From positions 124,001-188,000 of the forward strand of contig NZ_WLCM01000003.1 in assembly GCF_013317235.1 (NCBI RefSeq): DNA of 64,000 nt, in the 5' to 3' direction. Positions 41,579 to 54,224 of the stretch are shown in pieces (the first letter of the stretch is position 1; the number at the start of each line of letters is the position of its first letter). The DNA comes from Leisingera sp. ANG59. GTDB taxonomy: Bacteria; Pseudomonadota; Alphaproteobacteria; Rhodobacterales; Rhodobacteraceae. The notes under the pieces were generated by a model. The model was not told where the DNA came from and made no database searches. It was given only the letters and a program-made list of their open reading frames with translations. Position numbers and translations under genes: made by a program.

Positions 41579-42106
41579 ATGAACAGAAGGGCATTTGGCA
41601 TCGGTGCGGCCGTAAGCCTTGCGCTGGCTGGCTGCAGCTCCACCGGCGCCACCGTGAGCAGGTTCAAGGCGTATGATGGTCCGCAGGTCACGTCGATCGT
41701 GATCAATAAAGGTGCACGCAAGCTTTATCTGATGCACAACGATGAAATCCTGCGGGAATACGAGGTCGATTTGGGGTTTGCGCCGCTCGGACCTAAGCGG
41801 TTTGAAGGTGATGGCAAGACGCCGGAAGGCACTTATGTGATCAACCGGCGCAATCCGAACAGCCGTTACCACCTGTCAGTTGGCATCTCATACCCCAACA
41901 ATCAGGATCGCGCTCTTGCGCAGGCCAACGGTAAGCGGCCAGGTGGGGAAATCTTCATCCACGGTCAGCCGAACAATCCTAAGGAACGCAAGCGCGCGGC
42001 TCGGGTCGATGATTGGACAGCAGGCTGCATCGCCGTAACCAACGAGGAAATTGAAGAGATTTATGCGATGGTGCAGGACGGCACACCCATCGCATTGCGG
42101 CCCTGA
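41579..42106 (+). CDS. L,D-transpeptidase (YkuD) lipoprotein
   Basis: 175 residues. A signal peptide ends in a lipobox LAGC (C19), so it is predicted to be membrane-anchored lipoprotein. The catalytic YkuD motif is HGQ followed by DWTAGCIAVTNEEIEEIY with the active cysteine. L,D-transpeptidases crosslink peptidoglycan or attach proteins to it. A second, Tat-exported YkuD gene and a CAP lipoprotein lie within 2 kb. The gene ends at a strong terminator. Confidence 0.92.
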   Translation: MNRRAFGIGAAVSLALAGCSSTGATVSRFKAYDGPQVTSIVINKGARKLYLMHNDEILREYEVDLGFAPLGPKRFEGDGKTPEGTYVINRRNPNSRYHLSVGISYPNNQDRALAQANGKRPGGEIFIHGQPNNPKERKRAARVDDWTAGCIAVTNEEIEEIYAMVQDGTPIALRP

Positions 42107-42676: not shown

Positions 42677-42846
42677 AATGCTCTCTCGCTCTATCAGTCG
42701 CAGATGCATTTATCCTTCCTGTGGCAACTGTGCAAACGGGCCGGCAAAATTATGCAGACTTGGCCGCCGGATTGATTTGCGACTGCGGCTTTACGGCCAT
42801 AAAATGCTGCAGTCTTGGATCCCGAACGCGCAAATTGGAAGATGTG

Positions 42847-43464
42847 ATGTCCCGAAAACCATTTGAAATCTTCAGCCGGAGGCAGTTCCTTGCCGGAAGT
42901 GCTGCCTTGATATCCTCTTCGGCGCTGGCGCAAGAGGAACCTGATAGTGTTGAGCAAGCTTATGATCCATTGCGCCCGCCGCCAGAGCCGGAACCGCCGG
43001 TTCAGCGCAACATTTCTGCTTTCCGGGCAAAATCCTGGCGGCCATATTTCGACAATTTGCGCAACGGAGCGATTCTGGTCGATATCGACAGCCGGGCGCT
43101 GCACTATTGGTCCGCAGACGAAAACACCTACAAGTTGTTCCCATCATCGGTACCGCTGTCAGACGATCTGACACGCCGCGGCCGTACCCAGGTCGTGCGC
43201 AAGGTGGAAGGGCCAAGCTGGGCGCCAACACCCAATATGCGCGAGCGAAACCCGGAATGGCCTGCCTACATTCCGCCGGGCCCGGATAATCCGCTGGGCA
43301 CCCACGCGCTGTACTTGGGTTGGAAGTATTACCGGATCCATGGGACCCACGATACACGCAAGATCGGGCGCAAGTCGTCGAACGGATGCATCGGGCTCTA
43401 CAATGAGCATATCGCCGAGCTGTTCAGCTTGGCAAAAGTCGGCACTCAGGTGTTGCTAATTTGA
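42847..43464 (+). CDS. L,D-transpeptidase (YkuD) with Tat signal
   Basis: 205 residues from ATG 42847. The N-terminus has a twin-arginine motif SRRQFLAG (R12, R13) and an AQ cleavage region at about residue 29. After a Pro-rich linker the YkuD domain carries HGTHDTRKIGRKSSNGCIGL with catalytic cysteine. Tat export of a peptidoglycan crosslinker is common in Rhodobacteraceae. An upstream in-frame start at 42721 gives a Cys-rich tail without a signal. It is divergent from the CAP lipoprotein gene. Confidence 0.93.
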   Translation: MSRKPFEIFSRRQFLAGSAALISSSALAQEEPDSVEQAYDPLRPPPEPEPPVQRNISAFRAKSWRPYFDNLRNGAILVDIDSRALHYWSADENTYKLFPSSVPLSDDLTRRGRTQVVRKVEGPSWAPTPNMRERNPEWPAYIPPGPDNPLGTHALYLGWKYYRIHGTHDTRKIGRKSSNGCIGLYNEHIAELFSLAKVGTQVLLI

Positions 43465-43863: not shown

Positions 43864-46800
43864 TCAGGCTGCTTCCACTTCTTGCAGAATGCTATCCAGG
43901 GTTTTGACGATCATGCCAGTGTCGTCAGAGTCTATGGTCAGCGGCGGCCGTATTTTCAGGATATTGTCCTTGGGGCCTTCGCTGCCGATCAGGATCCGGT
44001 GGTCCCGCATCCGGTTTTTGACATAAGAGCAGATCTCTGTGGCTTCCGAGCCATCCGGGTTGATCAGCTCCATCCCAATGAAAAGCCCCATGCCGCGGAT
44101 GTCTCCGACACAGGCATATTTCTGTTCCAGAGATTTCAGGCCTTCAATCAGTTGTTTTCCCTGGATACGGGCGTTTTCCTGCAGGCCCTCGTCATCCACG
44201 ATATCCAGAACCTCCTTTCCAATCCTGCAAGAGAGTGTCGAGCCGCCGAAGGTGGAAAAGAATTCGATCCCGTTGTCGAAGCTTTCGGCGATTGCTTTGG
44301 TGGTCACAAGCACACCCAATGGGTGGCCGTTGCCGATTGGCTTACCCAGCACCACAATATCCGGCAGGGCGCCCTGATGTTCGAACCCGAAATAGTAGTC
44401 GCCAAGCCGCCCGAGGCCGGTTTGCACTTCATCTGCGATGCAGACACCACCCGCATGGCGGATTTTTTCATAAACTGCAGGCAGATATCCCTTAGGAGGA
44501 ATGATCTGACCACCAACCGAAGGGAAGGTTTCCGCTACGAAACCGGCCACGCCGTGGCCCTTTTCCTGCAGGCGTTTGATCGCTGGGCTTACAAGACCGG
44601 CATACTTCACAGCCCGGTCCGGGTCGTCCCTCCGGAAAGAGCCGCGATAGTCATCGGCAACTTCAACAAGCTCTACCCAATTGGCCTGCCCGATCCCGCC
44701 GGGTTTGTTGAACTTATATGCGGAGATGCTAATCGCTCCGGTGGTATTGCCGTGATACCCGTGATCCGGTGTCACCATGCCTTTGGCACCGGTATGGGCG
44801 CGGGCCAGCCGCAGGGCGAGCTCGTTTGCCTCAGTCCCCGAATTGACGAAGAAACAGACCTCGAAATTCTCTGGCAGCTTTGACAGCACCTTGTCGGCAA
44901 AGGCGGTCTGGGCAGGGTGCAGATAGCGTGTGTTTGAGTTCATCCGCTTCAGCTGGTCCGCAGCGACTGTCTGGATACGCGGGTGGGCGTGGCCCACATG
45001 CGGCACATTGTTGTAGGCATCCAGATAAGGCCGTCCCCATTCGTCAAACAAATGGTGCTTCCAGCCGCGCACCAGCATTACGGGATCAGTGTACGTTAGG
45101 CTCAGGTTGCCGCCGAAATGCGCCTTGCGCCCGGCCAGGACGTCTTCCTTTCTGGTGGGCTGATAACAAACCTTTTCATCCGGCAGGTTCAGCAGCGCAG
45201 CCGGGTTCGGGCAGAGCGCGCGCCACAGGCACATCTCATCCGGATCGCCCACCCCGGGCCAGTCGGCTTCTATCCCTTCAGTGCTCAGAGCCAGCTGGAA
45301 ATGCACATGCGGTGCCCAGCCGCCGTTTTGACTGGGGTCGCCGAGGCGGCAGAATTCTTCACCCTTTTCGATCGTATCACCAGGTTTAAAACGGTCCAGG
45401 AACTCAGGATCCAGATGGCCGTAAAGGGTATAGAAGGGATCGCCTTCGGGTGTTTCATGACGCAGGATGATCACCCCGCCATAGTCCAGATGCCCATTGC
45501 GGTACTCGGCGACAAGCACTTCGCCGCGCAATGGTGCGAACATCGCCGTGCCTGCCGGAGCAAAGGCGTCCACTGCCAGATGCACAGTGCGGCGGTTGCT
45601 GGCTTTCCACGGGCCCTTGCGGAAGGCCGCATCTGTGTAAATCAGCCTGGGTTCATGGTAGTAGCCAAGCCAGGTTCGACCGTTATCCTCAAATTCCTCA
45701 CCGACCTTGGCAGCTTCTTCTTCGGGCATGTGAAACGGGTTTTGCGGCCAGGTGGAATGTTCTACCGACAGCGATCCCATGGGCGCATCCGCCAGGTCTT
45801 CTCCCATTAGGGGTGCGAAATTACCGCGTTCCTGCTTAAGCCATGCCATGACGCGGTTGGCGCCCTCGACCACCGGCAGGCCGCAGGCCGCGCGCAGCCG
45901 GGCATTCAGCAGCCCGCCGTGCAGCGAATTGCCTTCCAGGAACCGCCAGGCCGGCGCCTGGGAGATCGTCACATAGGGGTCATCGGGGTTTTCAACGGCC
46001 ATTAGGGTGGAGTTCACAACACTTACCGCCAACCGCATCTTCAGCAGCGGCCAGACCATGTCCACTTCTGCGGCGGTCAGTGGGCAGGCTTCGTGATAGC
46101 CAGCGACCAGTGACGCAAGAGCTGCTTCGGGCGCCGGGTGGTCGAGAACGATGTAGGCCGCGGCAATTGCCAGATCGCAAACGCGCGGCGCGGCGCACAT
46201 ATCGCCCAGGTCGATCAGGCCGGATACCTGCCGCGGTACGTTCAATTCGCCGGCCACCATGATGTTGTAATCATTTGCGTCGTTGTGGATGGCTAGTTTG
46301 GGCAGTTCCGTCAAAGCGGGCACTAGCTCGGCAAAATCCGCAGAAATTTTTTGCAGAAGCGCGTGGCGCGCAGGGTTTTCAATGCAGAATAGCTGGTCCG
46401 AGATCCAGCCTGCGCGCATCAGGTCCCATTTGAAATCGCGCTCGAGGCCTTCATGGCTGAAGTCCGCCAGTGCATTGGACACACCGCCCAGAACCCGTCC
46501 GATCTCATGGATCAGCGAATCGCTTTTCGGCTCTGACTTGGCATAGCAACGCCCTGGCAACTGGCTCAGCAGCCAGACCAGCCTGTCCTGCCCTTGTTCG
46601 TCCTGGAGGGTCAGTAGTGTCTCTCCGGCAAGAGAAGCAATCACTCGCGGGCAGGGCAGGTCTGGCTGGCGCTCTGCGATGTGCCGAAACGCCTTTACCT
46701 GCATATCGACCAGCCATACCTCGCAGCCGGGGCGCATGGCCTTGAGGACATAGCCTTGGCCATCAGACCTTTTGGCAAGGAAATTGAGGTCGTATTCACC

Positions 46801-46872
46801 ATCCAGGCGGCTCAATTCTGCTTCAATGCCCCAGTGTTCCTGGAGGGCAGCCGCCCAATGCGTAAGCGTCAT
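43864..46872 (-). CDS. Three-domain fusion: APH-like small-molecule kinase, M23 peptidase, class III aminotransferase
   Basis: 1002 residues with three recognisable domains. The APH-like kinase (about 1-330) has HNDANDYNIM with H196, D198 and N203, and DLGD at 221-224. An M23 (LytM-type) domain (about 425-545) keeps H431 and D435 in HLAVD, H486 in YGHLD and H522/H524 in HVHF. A class III aminotransferase (about 585-1002) has D814 in IADEVQTGLGRLG and the PLP lysine K844 in LGKPIGNG. Kinase plus PLP phospho-lyase-type enzymes act on amino alcohols in animals (hydroxylysine kinase and phospho-lyase), so a similar pathway is an inference. No signal peptide is visible. Confidence 0.88.
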   Translation of the reverse strand: MTLTHWAAALQEHWGIEAELSRLDGEYDLNFLAKRSDGQGYVLKAMRPGCEVWLVDMQVKAFRHIAERQPDLPCPRVIASLAGETLLTLQDEQGQDRLVWLLSQLPGRCYAKSEPKSDSLIHEIGRVLGGVSNALADFSHEGLERDFKWDLMRAGWISDQLFCIENPARHALLQKISADFAELVPALTELPKLAIHNDANDYNIMVAGELNVPRQVSGLIDLGDMCAAPRVCDLAIAAAYIVLDHPAPEAALASLVAGYHEACPLTAAEVDMVWPLLKMRLAVSVVNSTLMAVENPDDPYVTISQAPAWRFLEGNSLHGGLLNARLRAACGLPVVEGANRVMAWLKQERGNFAPLMGEDLADAPMGSLSVEHSTWPQNPFHMPEEEAAKVGEEFEDNGRTWLGYYHEPRLIYTDAAFRKGPWKASNRRTVHLAVDAFAPAGTAMFAPLRGEVLVAEYRNGHLDYGGVIILRHETPEGDPFYTLYGHLDPEFLDRFKPGDTIEKGEEFCRLGDPSQNGGWAPHVHFQLALSTEGIEADWPGVGDPDEMCLWRALCPNPAALLNLPDEKVCYQPTRKEDVLAGRKAHFGGNLSLTYTDPVMLVRGWKHHLFDEWGRPYLDAYNNVPHVGHAHPRIQTVAADQLKRMNSNTRYLHPAQTAFADKVLSKLPENFEVCFFVNSGTEANELALRLARAHTGAKGMVTPDHGYHGNTTGAISISAYKFNKPGGIGQANWVELVEVADDYRGSFRRDDPDRAVKYAGLVSPAIKRLQEKGHGVAGFVAETFPSVGGQIIPPKGYLPAVYEKIRHAGGVCIADEVQTGLGRLGDYYFGFEHQGALPDIVVLGKPIGNGHPLGVLVTTKAIAESFDNGIEFFSTFGGSTLSCRIGKEVLDIVDDEGLQENARIQGKQLIEGLKSLEQKYACVGDIRGMGLFIGMELINPDGSEATEICSYVKNRMRDHRILIGSEGPKDNILKIRPPLTIDSDDTGMIVKTLDSILQEVEAA

Positions 46873-52401: not shown

Positions 52402-53382
52402 ATGGATAGATACCCGGACCAAAAGCGCGCTGTGCATTATCTTTACCCGCCGGTTGAGCCATTTGACCAGCGCATGATCGACGCAGGCCAGGGCCACCGC
52501 ATTTATGCGGAGCAAAGCGGTAATCCAAATGGAATTCCTGTGATCGTCTGCCATGGCGGCCCCGGTGGCGGCAGCAGCCCGGCAATGCGCCGATACTTCG
52601 ATCCGCATGTCTATCGAATCATCCTGTTTGATCAGCGCGGCTGCGGCCGGTCGCGCCCCTATGCCTCATGCGAGAATAACACCACCTGGAATCTGGTGGC
52701 TGATATGGAGTTGATTCGAACACAGCTCTGTATCGACTCCTGGGTGTTGTTCGGTGGCAGTTGGGGTGCGACCCTTGCACTGATCTATGCGCAGGCTCAT
52801 CCGGAACGTGTACAGCAGATCATCTTGCGCGGTGTCTTCCTGATGACCAAAGCAGAGCTGGATTGGTTCTACGGCGGTGGCGCAGGGAAGTTTTGGCCGG
52901 AGACCTGGGCCAAGTTTGTTTCCTTGATTCCGGATGCGGAGCGAAACGATATGATAGCCGCATACAAAAAGCGGCTGTTTTCGGGCAATCTTGAAGAAGA
53001 AGTGCGATACGGCCGGGCCTGGTCTGCCTGGGAAAACGCACTGGCGTCGGTTCATTCCAACGGGCAAAGCGGTGAAAGCCCAGGGGATTATGCACGCGCG
53101 TTTGCCCGGTTGGAGAATCACTATTTCAGTAATGGCGGCTTCCTTGACTACGATGGTCAGATCCTTGCCAATATGGGCCGCGTCTCCCATATTCCCGGTG
53201 TTATCGTGCAGGGCCGCTACGACATGATCTGCCCGCCATCTTCGGCCTGGCGCCTGAGAGAATTGTGGCCGAATGCGGAGTTGAAGATGGTGCGCAATGC
53301 CGGGCATGCTTTGTCGGAGCCGGGAATCAGCGCAGAGCTGGTCCGGGCGATGGACCGGATTGCAGGAGAGCTTGTGCCATGA
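52402..53382 (+). CDS. pip: Proline iminopeptidase
   Basis: 326 residues of the alpha/beta hydrolase S33 family, which removes N-terminal proline from peptides. The oxyanion and nucleophile region is [18 protein letters not shown] with the serine in GGSWG near residue 117, preceded by [11 protein letters not shown]. The catalytic aspartate and histidine lie in the C-terminal RYDMICPP and [10 protein letters not shown] segments. Its stop overlaps the next start by 4 bases, so it is coupled to a substrate-binding protein gene. Confidence 0.93.
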
Positions 53383-54224
53383 CGCGCATCGACCGCCGCG
53401 CGCTGTTCACCTCTGGTGCTGCTGCTGCCTTGCTTGCGGCGGCTGGCGGTTCAGTCAATGCATCACCCAAGGCTGGCGGTGTGTTGCGCCTGGCGGTGCC
53501 GCGCGAGCACGGGATGCTGGAGCAGGCCGCCCGCGGTGCGGTCTATGACACGCTGACAGAAATCGCTCCTGATGGATTGTTGCGCGGGGAACTAGCTACC
53601 AGCTGGCTATCCGCTCCGGACGCACGAGCCTGGACTTTCGATCTGCGGGAAGGCGTTACTTTCCACGATGGCAGACAATTAACGGCGGAAGATGCCGCTG
53701 CCTCTCTAAATGTGCTGGGTGCGACCGGCTTAGAAGTGCGAGCGGCCACCGCGTTGGGAAGTCATCAGCTGTTGCTGGAACTGGAGCAGCCCAATCCGCA
53801 TCTGCCTTATCTGCTGGCCGACGCGGATCATATAATTGCTCCGCGGGGCGCACGGCATGTGCCTCTTGCTGAGGCGGTTGGGACCGGCTGCTACCGGGTC
53901 GAACGTGCCCAGGAGGATCGCCACTTCCGAGCTTCCAAGGTGGCAGGGCATTACAAGGCCGGCACCGCGGGCTGGGCAGACACGGTGGAAATCATCGTGA
54001 TTCCGGATGCCTCGGTCCGGGCTGAGGCACTGCGTGACGGTTATGTCGATGTGGCCGCCCTGCCGGAACCGCGCGGGGTGTTGAAGCGCGGTGAGTTCCT
54101 GTATCACCCGTCCTCCAGAGATATGGCATTGGCCGCCCGCCACGATGTCGGCATCCCGCGCAAAGTGGGCCAGCGGGCGCCGCTGGATGATGGCCGTATC
54201 GCGGAACGGTGGTGGCGAGTTTAG
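53379..54224 (+). CDS. Short periplasmic peptide/oligopeptide-binding-like protein (SBP family 5)
   Basis: 281 residues from ATG 53379. The N-terminus has a twin-arginine-like start (IDRRALFTSGAAAALLAAAGG). The domain resembles the first part of family 5 binding proteins: LRLAVPREHGMLEQ, YDTLTEIAPDGLLRGELATSW and FDLREGVTFHDGRQLTAEDA. Full-length family members have about 500 residues, so the C-terminal lobe seems missing. No permease gene is adjacent. It is translationally coupled to pip, which suggests a peptide-use context. Confidence 0.76.
   Translation: MTRIDRRALFTSGAAAALLAAAGGSVNASPKAGGVLRLAVPREHGMLEQAARGAVYDTLTEIAPDGLLRGELATSWLSAPDARAWTFDLREGVTFHDGRQLTAEDAAASLNVLGATGLEVRAATALGSHQLLLELEQPNPHLPYLLADADHIIAPRGARHVPLAEAVGTGCYRVERAQEDRHFRASKVAGHYKAGTAGWADTVEIIVIPDASVRAEALRDGYVDVAALPEPRGVLKRGEFLYHPSSRDMALAARHDVGIPRKVGQRAPLDDGRIAERWWRV

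What the first reader, a model, noticed from the sequence alone, without database searches (positions are those of the whole stretch)
43864..46872. Kinase, M23 peptidase and class III aminotransferase fused in one 1002-residue protein
All three domains keep their key residues (H196/D198/N203; H431, D435, H486, H522/H524; D814 and K844). A cell-wall-type metallopeptidase fused between a small-molecule kinase and a PLP enzyme without a signal peptide is hard to explain. The kinase-lyase pair resembles animal hydroxylysine/ethanolamine phosphate degradation, and the M23 part may act on a cytoplasmic peptide or be a structural spacer.
Basis: partly seen in the sequence, partly recalled or inferred. 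Interest (0 to 1): 0.7.

Follow-up and report, generated by a model that had tools for sequence, protein, structure and literature searches.

The report
Three-in-one amino-alcohol breakdown enzyme
A marine bacterium carries one intracellular protein that joins a kinase, a zinc peptidase of the cell-wall type and a vitamin-B6 lyase, with all three active sites intact in most relatives examined, which suggests that it frees and burns an amino alcohol, possibly the collagen building block hydroxylysine.

Summary
The ORF is real: window 43864-46872, minus strand, 1002 aa, APH kinase + peptidase M23 + class III PLP domain, no export signal seen. The architecture is already a database family (NCBIfam NF004799/PRK06148, "hypothetical protein"), without a function. 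New here: (1) M23 metal/catalytic residues are kept in nearly all PRK06148-type fusions examined, under selection like the lyase's. (2) On a tree a live M23 is ancestral to the fused clade; it died in the PRK06149 clade and in one other protein (one joint death: AU p 0.043) and is absent from some kinase-lyase fusions, so it is no obligatory spacer. (3) The M23 subfamily also occurs alone and as M23-lyase, some beside peptide-type importers. (4) In some relatives the fusion shares operon-like runs with GH1 or GH42 glycosidases. The lyase is closest to human ethanolamine-phosphate phospho-lyase. Best reading: cytoplasmic release, phosphorylation and elimination of a conjugated vicinal amino alcohol, probably hydroxylysine. 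No substrate is proven, and the window's own locus lacks such neighbours apart from a shortened binding-protein ORF.

The parts
43864..46872 (-). complete CDS, 1002 aa kinase-M23-phospholyase fusion (NF004799/PRK06148 family)
   Evidence: 1527.9 bits over residues 2-1001
46087..46800 (-). APH-fold kinase domain (Pfam stretch, residues 25-262; H196/D198/N203, D221)
   Evidence: residues invariant in 80 of 80 rows, though H196 is Y in the distant L130; model pLDDT mostly above 80
45598..45852 (-). linker / pre-M23 segment, residues 341-425, with a G-x-Y/W-x-E-x-R motif shared with stand-alone relatives
45289..45585 (-). peptidase M23 domain (Pfam stretch, residues 430-528)
   Evidence: pairwise dN/dS 0.04-0.09 for residues 426-545
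45568..45582 (-). M23 HxxxD motif (H431, D435)
45301..45309 (-). M23 HxH motif (H522, H524)
43885..45075 (-). class III PLP phospho-lyase-like domain (Pfam stretch, residues 600-996)
44341..44343 (-). codon of the presumed PLP lysine K844

Best explanation
A soluble cytoplasmic catabolic enzyme that takes an imported, conjugated vicinal amino alcohol, most likely a peptide that carries 5-hydroxylysine (in collagen often galactosylated; recalled), and degrades it in three steps. The zinc M23 domain hydrolyses an amide/peptide bond and frees the amino acid. The kinase domain phosphorylates the hydroxyl. The PLP domain eliminates phosphate and ammonia to give an aldehyde (2-aminoadipate 6-semialdehyde if the substrate is hydroxylysine), which would feed lysine catabolism. 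SHOWN here: architecture, conserved active-site residues, selection on M23, a live M23 as the likely ancestral state with later losses, lack of an export signal, phospho-lyase kinship. INFERRED: every enzyme activity, the order of steps, that M23 and kinase-lyase serve one pathway, and hydroxylysine as the substrate.
For: Lyase: best PDB hit is human ethanolamine-phosphate phospho-lyase; the genome's two stand-alone paralogues instead prefer the Arthrobacter enzyme. Kinase: APH fold near homoserine kinase and aminopropanol kinase 6ef6. M23: H431, D435, H486, H522, H524 kept in 80 of 80 rows, 11 of 11, 19 of 20 family loci, 14 of 14 (sets overlap); dN/dS 0.04-0.09 against 0.045-0.065 (lyase) and 0.10-0.145 (kinase) over eight pairs (dS often above 1). 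M23 is at least as conserved as the kinase in 8 of 9 live pairs and 0 of 4 dead pairs. Signal-less stand-alone M23 relatives; in L179 the M23 gene starts two bases after an MFS gene in a same-strand run with an SBP5-type ABC importer. M23-lyase genes follow an SBP5 importer in 3 of 3 loci, all one genus. Glycosidases: GH42 overlaps the fusion by 4 bp in L198 and is that genome's only GH42; GH1 overlaps it by 4 bp (as called, with a TTG start) in L196; GH1 lies in the same-strand run in G051 and G071, each with a single GH1. Loci of four f10 genomes carry an amino-acid binding-protein gene beside the fusion; the copy tested is nearest the lysine/arginine/ornithine type, below that model's cut-off.
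Against: Only 4 of the 80 loci have any of the context markers tested. The window has none of them apart from a shortened SBP5 ORF 6.4 kb upstream, and its genome has no GH1 or GH42. The glycosidase link was seen post hoc; G194 has no GH1, the two GH1 of G197 lie elsewhere, and L199, sister of L198, shows none on its 13.8-kb contig. The GH1 of L196 scores as a beta-glucosidase, not specifically a galactosidase. A different cluster (gamma-glutamyl-amide-synthetase-like GS, isochorismatase, N-formylglutamate-amidohydrolase-like, Liv-type binding protein) occurs in part or whole in 8 of 119 fusion loci (not dereplicated) and fits a small amine equally well. On the best tree M23 was inactivated twice and excised once, so the kinase-lyase couple does not need it. 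The two saccharopine-dehydrogenase-type hits of the window's genome do not establish a lysine route: the one tested has no NCBIfam name. The full-length model is poor in the lyase (pLDDT 66 overall), so domain contacts are unknown.
Confidence: 0.38

Rival explanations
1. Same chemistry but for a small amine: an ethanolamine or 1-amino-2-propanol kinase plus phospho-lyase, with M23 hydrolysing an amide conjugate of it (for instance a gamma-glutamyl amide made by a GS-like enzyme).
For: Nearest solved lyase is the ethanolamine-phosphate enzyme; the kinase fold resembles aminopropanol kinase and a choline/ethanolamine-family kinase; no EutB was found in the window's genome, so the B12 route for ethanolamine seems absent; a GS-like gene (best NCBIfam match gamma-glutamylputrescine synthetase, 237.7 bits, cut-off 650) lies near the fusion in 6 loci, and in L142 it ends one base before the fusion's first in-frame ATG.
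Against: Glycosidases, peptide-type importers and an amino-acid-type binding protein near other members are not expected for free ethanolamine. Human PHYKPL (hydroxylysine) is not among the 60 listed PDB hits, so the best hit cannot separate the two substrates. I know of no M23 enzyme that acts on such amides (recalled).
Confidence: 0.3
2. The M23 domain is only a structural or regulatory module between two enzymes.
For: In the PRK06149 rows (7 of 7) and L196 the metal ligands are lost while the region persists; there M23 is less conserved than the kinase (4 of 4 dead pairs, and the dead-live pair L196-L198).
Against: Kinase-lyase fusions without M23 exist, so no spacer is needed; site residues are nearly invariant in PRK06148-type proteins; stand-alone live relatives exist.
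Confidence: 0.17
3. The M23 domain works on cell-wall peptides that return to the cytoplasm (peptidoglycan recycling), the kinase-lyase part on a wall-derived amino alcohol.
For: M23 enzymes classically cut peptidoglycan (recalled); two YkuD L,D-transpeptidase genes lie next to the window's gene.
Against: That gene order was found only in the Leisingera/Phaeobacter group of the loci; no export signal; annotated neighbours in other lineages are importers and catabolic genes.
Confidence: 0.06
4. The PLP domain is an ordinary aminotransferase and the three domains are an accidental fusion without a shared pathway.
For: Pfam and many NCBIfam transaminase models match the domain.
Against: A tree separates the fused lyases and the stand-alone phospho-lyase group from five class III enzymes of the same genome at 100/100; triple fusions, kinase-lyase fusions and neighbouring kinase and lyase genes recur, so kinase and lyase belong together.
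Confidence: 0.06

Closest known systems
NCBIfam NF004799 / PRK06148 (hypothetical protein) and its sister NF004800 / PRK06149 (aminotransferase)
   Same: PRK06148: full-length match, same three domains (1527.9 bits, cut-off 1128). PRK06149: same kinase and lyase, homologous middle region (hhalign probability 97.0, E 1.1e-10).
   Different: Neither name states a function for the whole protein. PRK06149-type proteins have lost the M23 metal ligands (7 of 7 rows), and the query scores under that model's cut-off (694.8 against 973).
Animal hydroxylysine kinase + phosphohydroxylysine / ethanolamine-phosphate phospho-lyases (Veiga-da-Cunha et al. 2012; title seen only in the reference list of PMC8154272, content recalled)
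   Same: APH-type kinase and a class III PLP ammonio-phospholyase; 6tor is the best PDB hit.
   Different: Separate proteins in animals (recalled); no peptidase.
Microcompartment-associated aminopropanol kinase (PDB 6ef6, title seen; the partner phospho-lyase pathway is recalled)
   Same: APH-type kinase for a vicinal amino alcohol (Foldseek E 2.2e-9, target TM 0.71).
   Different: Not fused, organelle-associated, no M23.
Peptidase family M23 (LytM, lysostaphin, ShyA; PDB 2hsi, 5kqb, 2b44)
   Same: HxxxD...H...HxH motif set; Pfam gathering cut-off passed.
   Different: Known members are exported (recalled); this subfamily shows no export signal and forms a discrete group (12 hits at 136 bits or more, next 58 bits, in 299 genomes).
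Split HAD-kinase-lyase run (own genome, L139; Herbaspirillum Hrubri_0245-0243, passage of PMC13275390)
   Same: Kinase and lyase-type genes encoded side by side.
   Different: Separate genes, no M23; the L139 lyase falls in the stand-alone lyase group of the tree.

Membership tests
NF004799 / PRK06148 | score over the curated cut-off (1128 bits) along the full model | tested here: met
   1527.9 bits, residues 2-1001 on model 12-1013
NF004800 / PRK06149 | score over the curated cut-off (973 bits) | tested here: not met
   694.8 bits
Class III PLP ammonio-phospholyase (ETNPPL/PHYKPL) | class III fold with PLP lysine and DEVQ motif | tested here: met
   Aminotran_3 E 6.5e-66; D814, Q817, K844 invariant in 80 of 80
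Class III PLP ammonio-phospholyase (ETNPPL/PHYKPL) | closer to known phospho-lyases than to transaminases | tested here: met
   6tor 397 and 5g4i 293 bits, next 159 bits; tree split 100/100
Class III PLP ammonio-phospholyase (ETNPPL/PHYKPL) | eliminates phosphate and ammonia from a phosphorylated amino alcohol | not testable with these tools
   needs assay
Hydroxylysine kinase (HYKK-like) | APH kinase fold with HxDxxxxN and IDxxD | tested here: met
Hydroxylysine kinase (HYKK-like) | sequence orthology to animal HYKK | not tested
   no HYKK sequence on hand; no PDB sequence hit at E 0.1 for the kinase
Hydroxylysine kinase (HYKK-like) | phosphorylates 5-hydroxylysine | not testable with these tools
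   needs assay
Peptidase M23 | Pfam gathering score and complete metal/catalytic residues | tested here: met
   45.5 bits over 28.7; H431, D435, H486, H522, H524; which of them bind zinc is recalled from LytM/lysostaphin
Peptidase M23 | export signal (usual for the family, recalled) | tested here: not met
   no hydrophobic N-terminus by Kyte-Doolittle scan; no dedicated program was run
Peptidase M23 | hydrolyses peptide bonds | not testable with these tools
   needs assay

The most novel reading that the evidence does not exclude
A one-protein pathway for collagen-type hydroxylysine glycopeptides. After import and sugar removal by partner glycosidases, a cytoplasmic M23 peptidase, perhaps the first with a catabolic instead of a cell-wall role, releases hydroxylysine directly to a fused kinase and phospho-lyase. 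The domain was lost or inactivated where another peptidase took over, such as the S58 peptidase beside three of the dead-M23 proteins.
Probability: 0.22. Interest if true: 0.78.

Novelty: new variant of a known kind. Interest (0 to 1): 0.56.

Why it matters
If true, it gives M23 peptidases a role inside the cell and in nutrition, supplies a gene for bacterial breakdown of hydroxylysine (or of a related amino alcohol), and offers a marker for collagen use by marine and soil bacteria. The live, dead and excised versions of one domain in one fused enzyme are a natural experiment on what the peptidase contributes. It would also give a function to a family now named 'hypothetical protein'.

Tried and rejected
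Structural spacer as the general role of M23: rejected, because kinase-lyase fusions without it exist.

Ordinary aminotransferase: rejected on the tree and PDB ranking.

Link to ferrochelatase or YkuD neighbours: hemH stands upstream in 20 of the 80 loci, the Leisingera/Phaeobacter group, so taken as local synteny.

Substrate from the kinase sequence: no PDB sequence hit at E 0.1; the fold search gives many amino-alcohol, sugar and antibiotic kinases and does not decide.

Domain interfaces: the full-length model was too poor (its Foldseek hits, have low TM-scores and are not used); a second model, of residues 1-575, was good (pLDDT 83.7) but says nothing of the lyase contacts. The second aligner was not available.

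Literature: the listings of ten searches showed no paper on this fusion. PRK06148 appears in one paper (PMC8249566), as a domain label of a lipoprotein in a Mycoplasma table (passage seen). The library holds open-licence papers only, so this is weak evidence of absence.

Independent losses: the AU test against one origin of the dead M23 in PRK06149 plus L196 gives p 0.043, borderline. An earlier tree rooted on a long-branch transaminase left the base unresolved and put the f10/f3 live group with the stand-alone lyases (91/75, unstarred).

The M23-only tree was mostly unresolved (5 of 19 inner branches starred). The dead-domain profile finds live fusions only weakly (E 1.2e-5 to 5.8e-4) and a few other places at like E-values, so the homology of the dead domain rests mainly.

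Chance of the glycosidase neighbours (P 0.0007 for 3 or more lineages within 8 genes) rests on my assumed gene counts and 35 lineages, was made after seeing them, and is only a rough guide.

SBP5 importers are common in such genomes (recalled) and I ran no background count for them, so that association is only suggestive.
Full report
WHAT IS THERE. The reported ORF is at window 43864-46872 on the minus strand and encodes 1002 aa. Pfam finds an APH kinase (25-262), a peptidase M23 domain (430-528) and a class III PLP domain (600-996), all over their cut-offs. No signal peptide or membrane segment shows in a hydropathy scan.

IS THE FUSION NEW. No: NCBIfam has a full-length model, NF004799/PRK06148, named 'hypothetical protein' (1527.9 bits, cut-off 1128). 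It is patchy: over the cut-off in 10 of 398 genomes sampled from the phylum, 21 of 198 from the family (23 of 198 at E 1e-200) and 11 of 385 from the class (13 at E 1e-200); these samples overlap. In genome contigs 189 stretches encode a relative, of which the best 80 were kept and read.

THE KINASE-LYASE PAIR. The lyase's best PDB sequence is human ethanolamine-phosphate phospho-lyase (397 bits), then the Arthrobacter phospholyase (293), then other class III enzymes (159 or less). Two stand-alone phospho-lyase-like paralogues in the same genome prefer the Arthrobacter enzyme (346 against 258, 378 against 333); one of them has its own kinase gene in front. The pair also exists as kinase-lyase fusions without M23 (L123-L125) and as neighbouring genes. 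The kinase has no PDB sequence hit at E 0.1; its model (residues 1-575, pLDDT 83.7, pTM 0.84) matches amicoumacin kinase, homoserine kinase, YihE and, at rank 12, a microcompartment-associated aminopropanol kinase. So phosphorylation and elimination on a vicinal amino alcohol is well supported but not assayed.

THE M23 DOMAIN IS MOSTLY ALIVE BY ITS RESIDUES. H431, D435, H486, H522 and H524 are kept in 80 of 80 rows (L070 was dropped by my ORF rule; it keeps the three motifs), 11 of 11 rows (eight triple fusions, one M23-lyase, two stand-alone), 19 of 20 loci of family genomes (L196 is the exception; at least three of the 20, L209, L210 and L213, repeat contigs by length) and 14 of 14 class loci (12 triple, 2 M23-lyase). 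Pairwise dN/dS of residues 426-545 against eight relatives is 0.04-0.09, like the lyase (0.045-0.065) and below the kinase (0.10-0.145) (dS often exceeds 1, so these are rough). The kinase residue H196 is Y in the distant fusion L130.

A SISTER FAMILY WITH A DEAD M23. PRK06149-type proteins (L129: 1642 bits, cut-off 973) have a middle region that Pfam does not recognise (two tested), but profile comparison joins it to the live M23 set (probability 97.0, E 1.1e-10). A search with the dead set finds live fusions only weakly (best E 1.2e-5), with a few other places at like E-values. In 7 of 7 such rows the metal ligands are gone. A separate member, L196, has also lost them. M23 is at least as conserved as the kinase in 8 of 9 live pairs and in 0 of 4 dead pairs, as expected when a function is lost.

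HISTORY. With the stand-alone lyases as outgroup, the fused clade is supported 100/100; live M23 is spread through it and so was probably ancestral. The dead PRK06149 clade (100/100) is sister to the roseobacter live group (94/97); L196 groups with live L198 and L199 (98/93); the M23-less kinase-lyase fusions (100/100) fall among live ones (91/88); the M23-lyase proteins seem to have lost the kinase. One joint origin of the dead forms is borderline rejected (p 0.043), and an earlier tree left the base unresolved. M23 is thus separable from the kinase-lyase couple, which argues for a reaction of its own and against an obligatory spacer.

THE SUBFAMILY OUTSIDE FUSIONS. A profile of this M23 region gives 12 hits at 136 bits or more in 299 genomes and then a gap down to 58 bits. 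Nine are in fusions, three are stand-alone (G247, G228, G015); a fourth stand-alone one is in G357. The four stand-alone proteins keep the HxxxD, YGHL and HxHxQ motifs; the three N-termini scanned (L119, L179, L180) show no export signal. In L179 the M23 gene starts two bases after an MFS gene, in a same-strand run with an SBP5-type ABC importer.

NEIGHBOURS IN RELATIVES (loci not dereplicated). SBP5 importers: M23-lyase 3 of 3 (one genus), PRK06149-type 3 of 7 (with an S58 peptidase gene between), stand-alone M23 1 of 4, and four triple-fusion loci (L027, L040, L203, L204; L210 shows only the permease at its edge). Glycosidases: L198 (GH42, 4-bp overlap), L196 (GH1, 4-bp overlap as called), L137 and L228 (GH1 in the same-strand run after amino-acid-type transporter genes). 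In G051 and G071 that GH1 is the only one found in the genome, in G430 the GH42 is the only one, in G411 the GH1 is one of two; G194 has no GH1, and G197 has two elsewhere. AsnC/Lrp-type regulator genes stand next to 6 of 16 class loci. A GS / isochorismatase / formylglutamate-hydrolase-like / Liv-type cluster occurs in part or whole with 8 of 119 fusion loci. Of the 80 loci only 4 have any marker. The window has none but a shortened SBP5 ORF; its genome has no GH1, GH42 or EutB, but two saccharopine-dehydrogenase C-domain hits of unsettled role.

MOST LIKELY MECHANISM. A peptide- or amide-linked amino alcohol enters the cytoplasm; M23 releases the free amine; the kinase phosphorylates the hydroxyl; the PLP domain eliminates phosphate and ammonia. 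Hydroxylysine is favoured because it is the vicinal amino alcohol that occurs both in peptides and under beta-linked galactose (collagen; recalled), which would make sense of peptidase, glycosidase and amino-acid-type transporters together. The ethanolamine/aminopropanol rival keeps substantial weight.

LIMITS. No activity is shown. The glycosidase association is post hoc and absent from the window's own lineage; no background count was made for SBP5 importers. The human hydroxylysine enzymes were not available for comparison. Papers: PMC8154272, PMC13275390, PMC8249566 and PMC2536512 were seen as passages only, others as search listings; Veiga-da-Cunha 2012 and the aminopropanol microcompartment work are recalled (not held). 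Group names f1, f10 and so on are the tool's codes; no call names those families.

Noticed in passing
L127:7256-10174, L128:7193-10120, L148:7603-10542, L129:7165-10077: PRK06149-type proteins carry a pseudo-M23 domain that Pfam did not report in the two tested (metal ligands lost); L127, L128 and L148 have an S58 peptidase and an SBP5 importer next door.
   Followed up: yes
L008 (record titled Nocardioides marinus DP1N28-1): A contig labelled as an actinobacterium carries the fusion at 83% identity in full Leisingera gene order: probably a mislabelled or contaminated assembly.
   Followed up: partly
L196:2481-9467, L198:8238-13231, L137:7732-17078: Fusion genes in operon-like runs with GH1 or GH42 glycosidases; L196 and L137 also with amino-acid-type transporter genes.
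   Followed up: yes
L142:1411-11079, L041, L051, L122, L197, L201, L218, L219: A recurring cluster (whole or in part) of GS-like gamma-glutamyl-amide synthetase, isochorismatase, formylglutamate-amidohydrolase-like and Liv-type binding-protein genes beside the fusion; its own pathway is unknown to me.
   Followed up: partly
window 53265-54224: An ORF matching only the first half of the SBP_bac_5 profile (positions 4-180 of 368): a shortened binding protein or relic, conserved in the Leisingera/Phaeobacter group.
   Followed up: partly
window 41579-42106 and 42721-43464: Two YkuD L,D-transpeptidase genes convergent with the fusion.
   Followed up: no
window 52402-53382: Prolyl aminopeptidase (TIGR01249, 394.8 bits) some 5.5 kb upstream of the fusion.
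   Followed up: no
L139:7398-10755: The window's genome also has a split HAD-kinase-phospholyase run, the same layout as Hrubri_0245-0243 in Herbaspirillum.
   Followed up: partly
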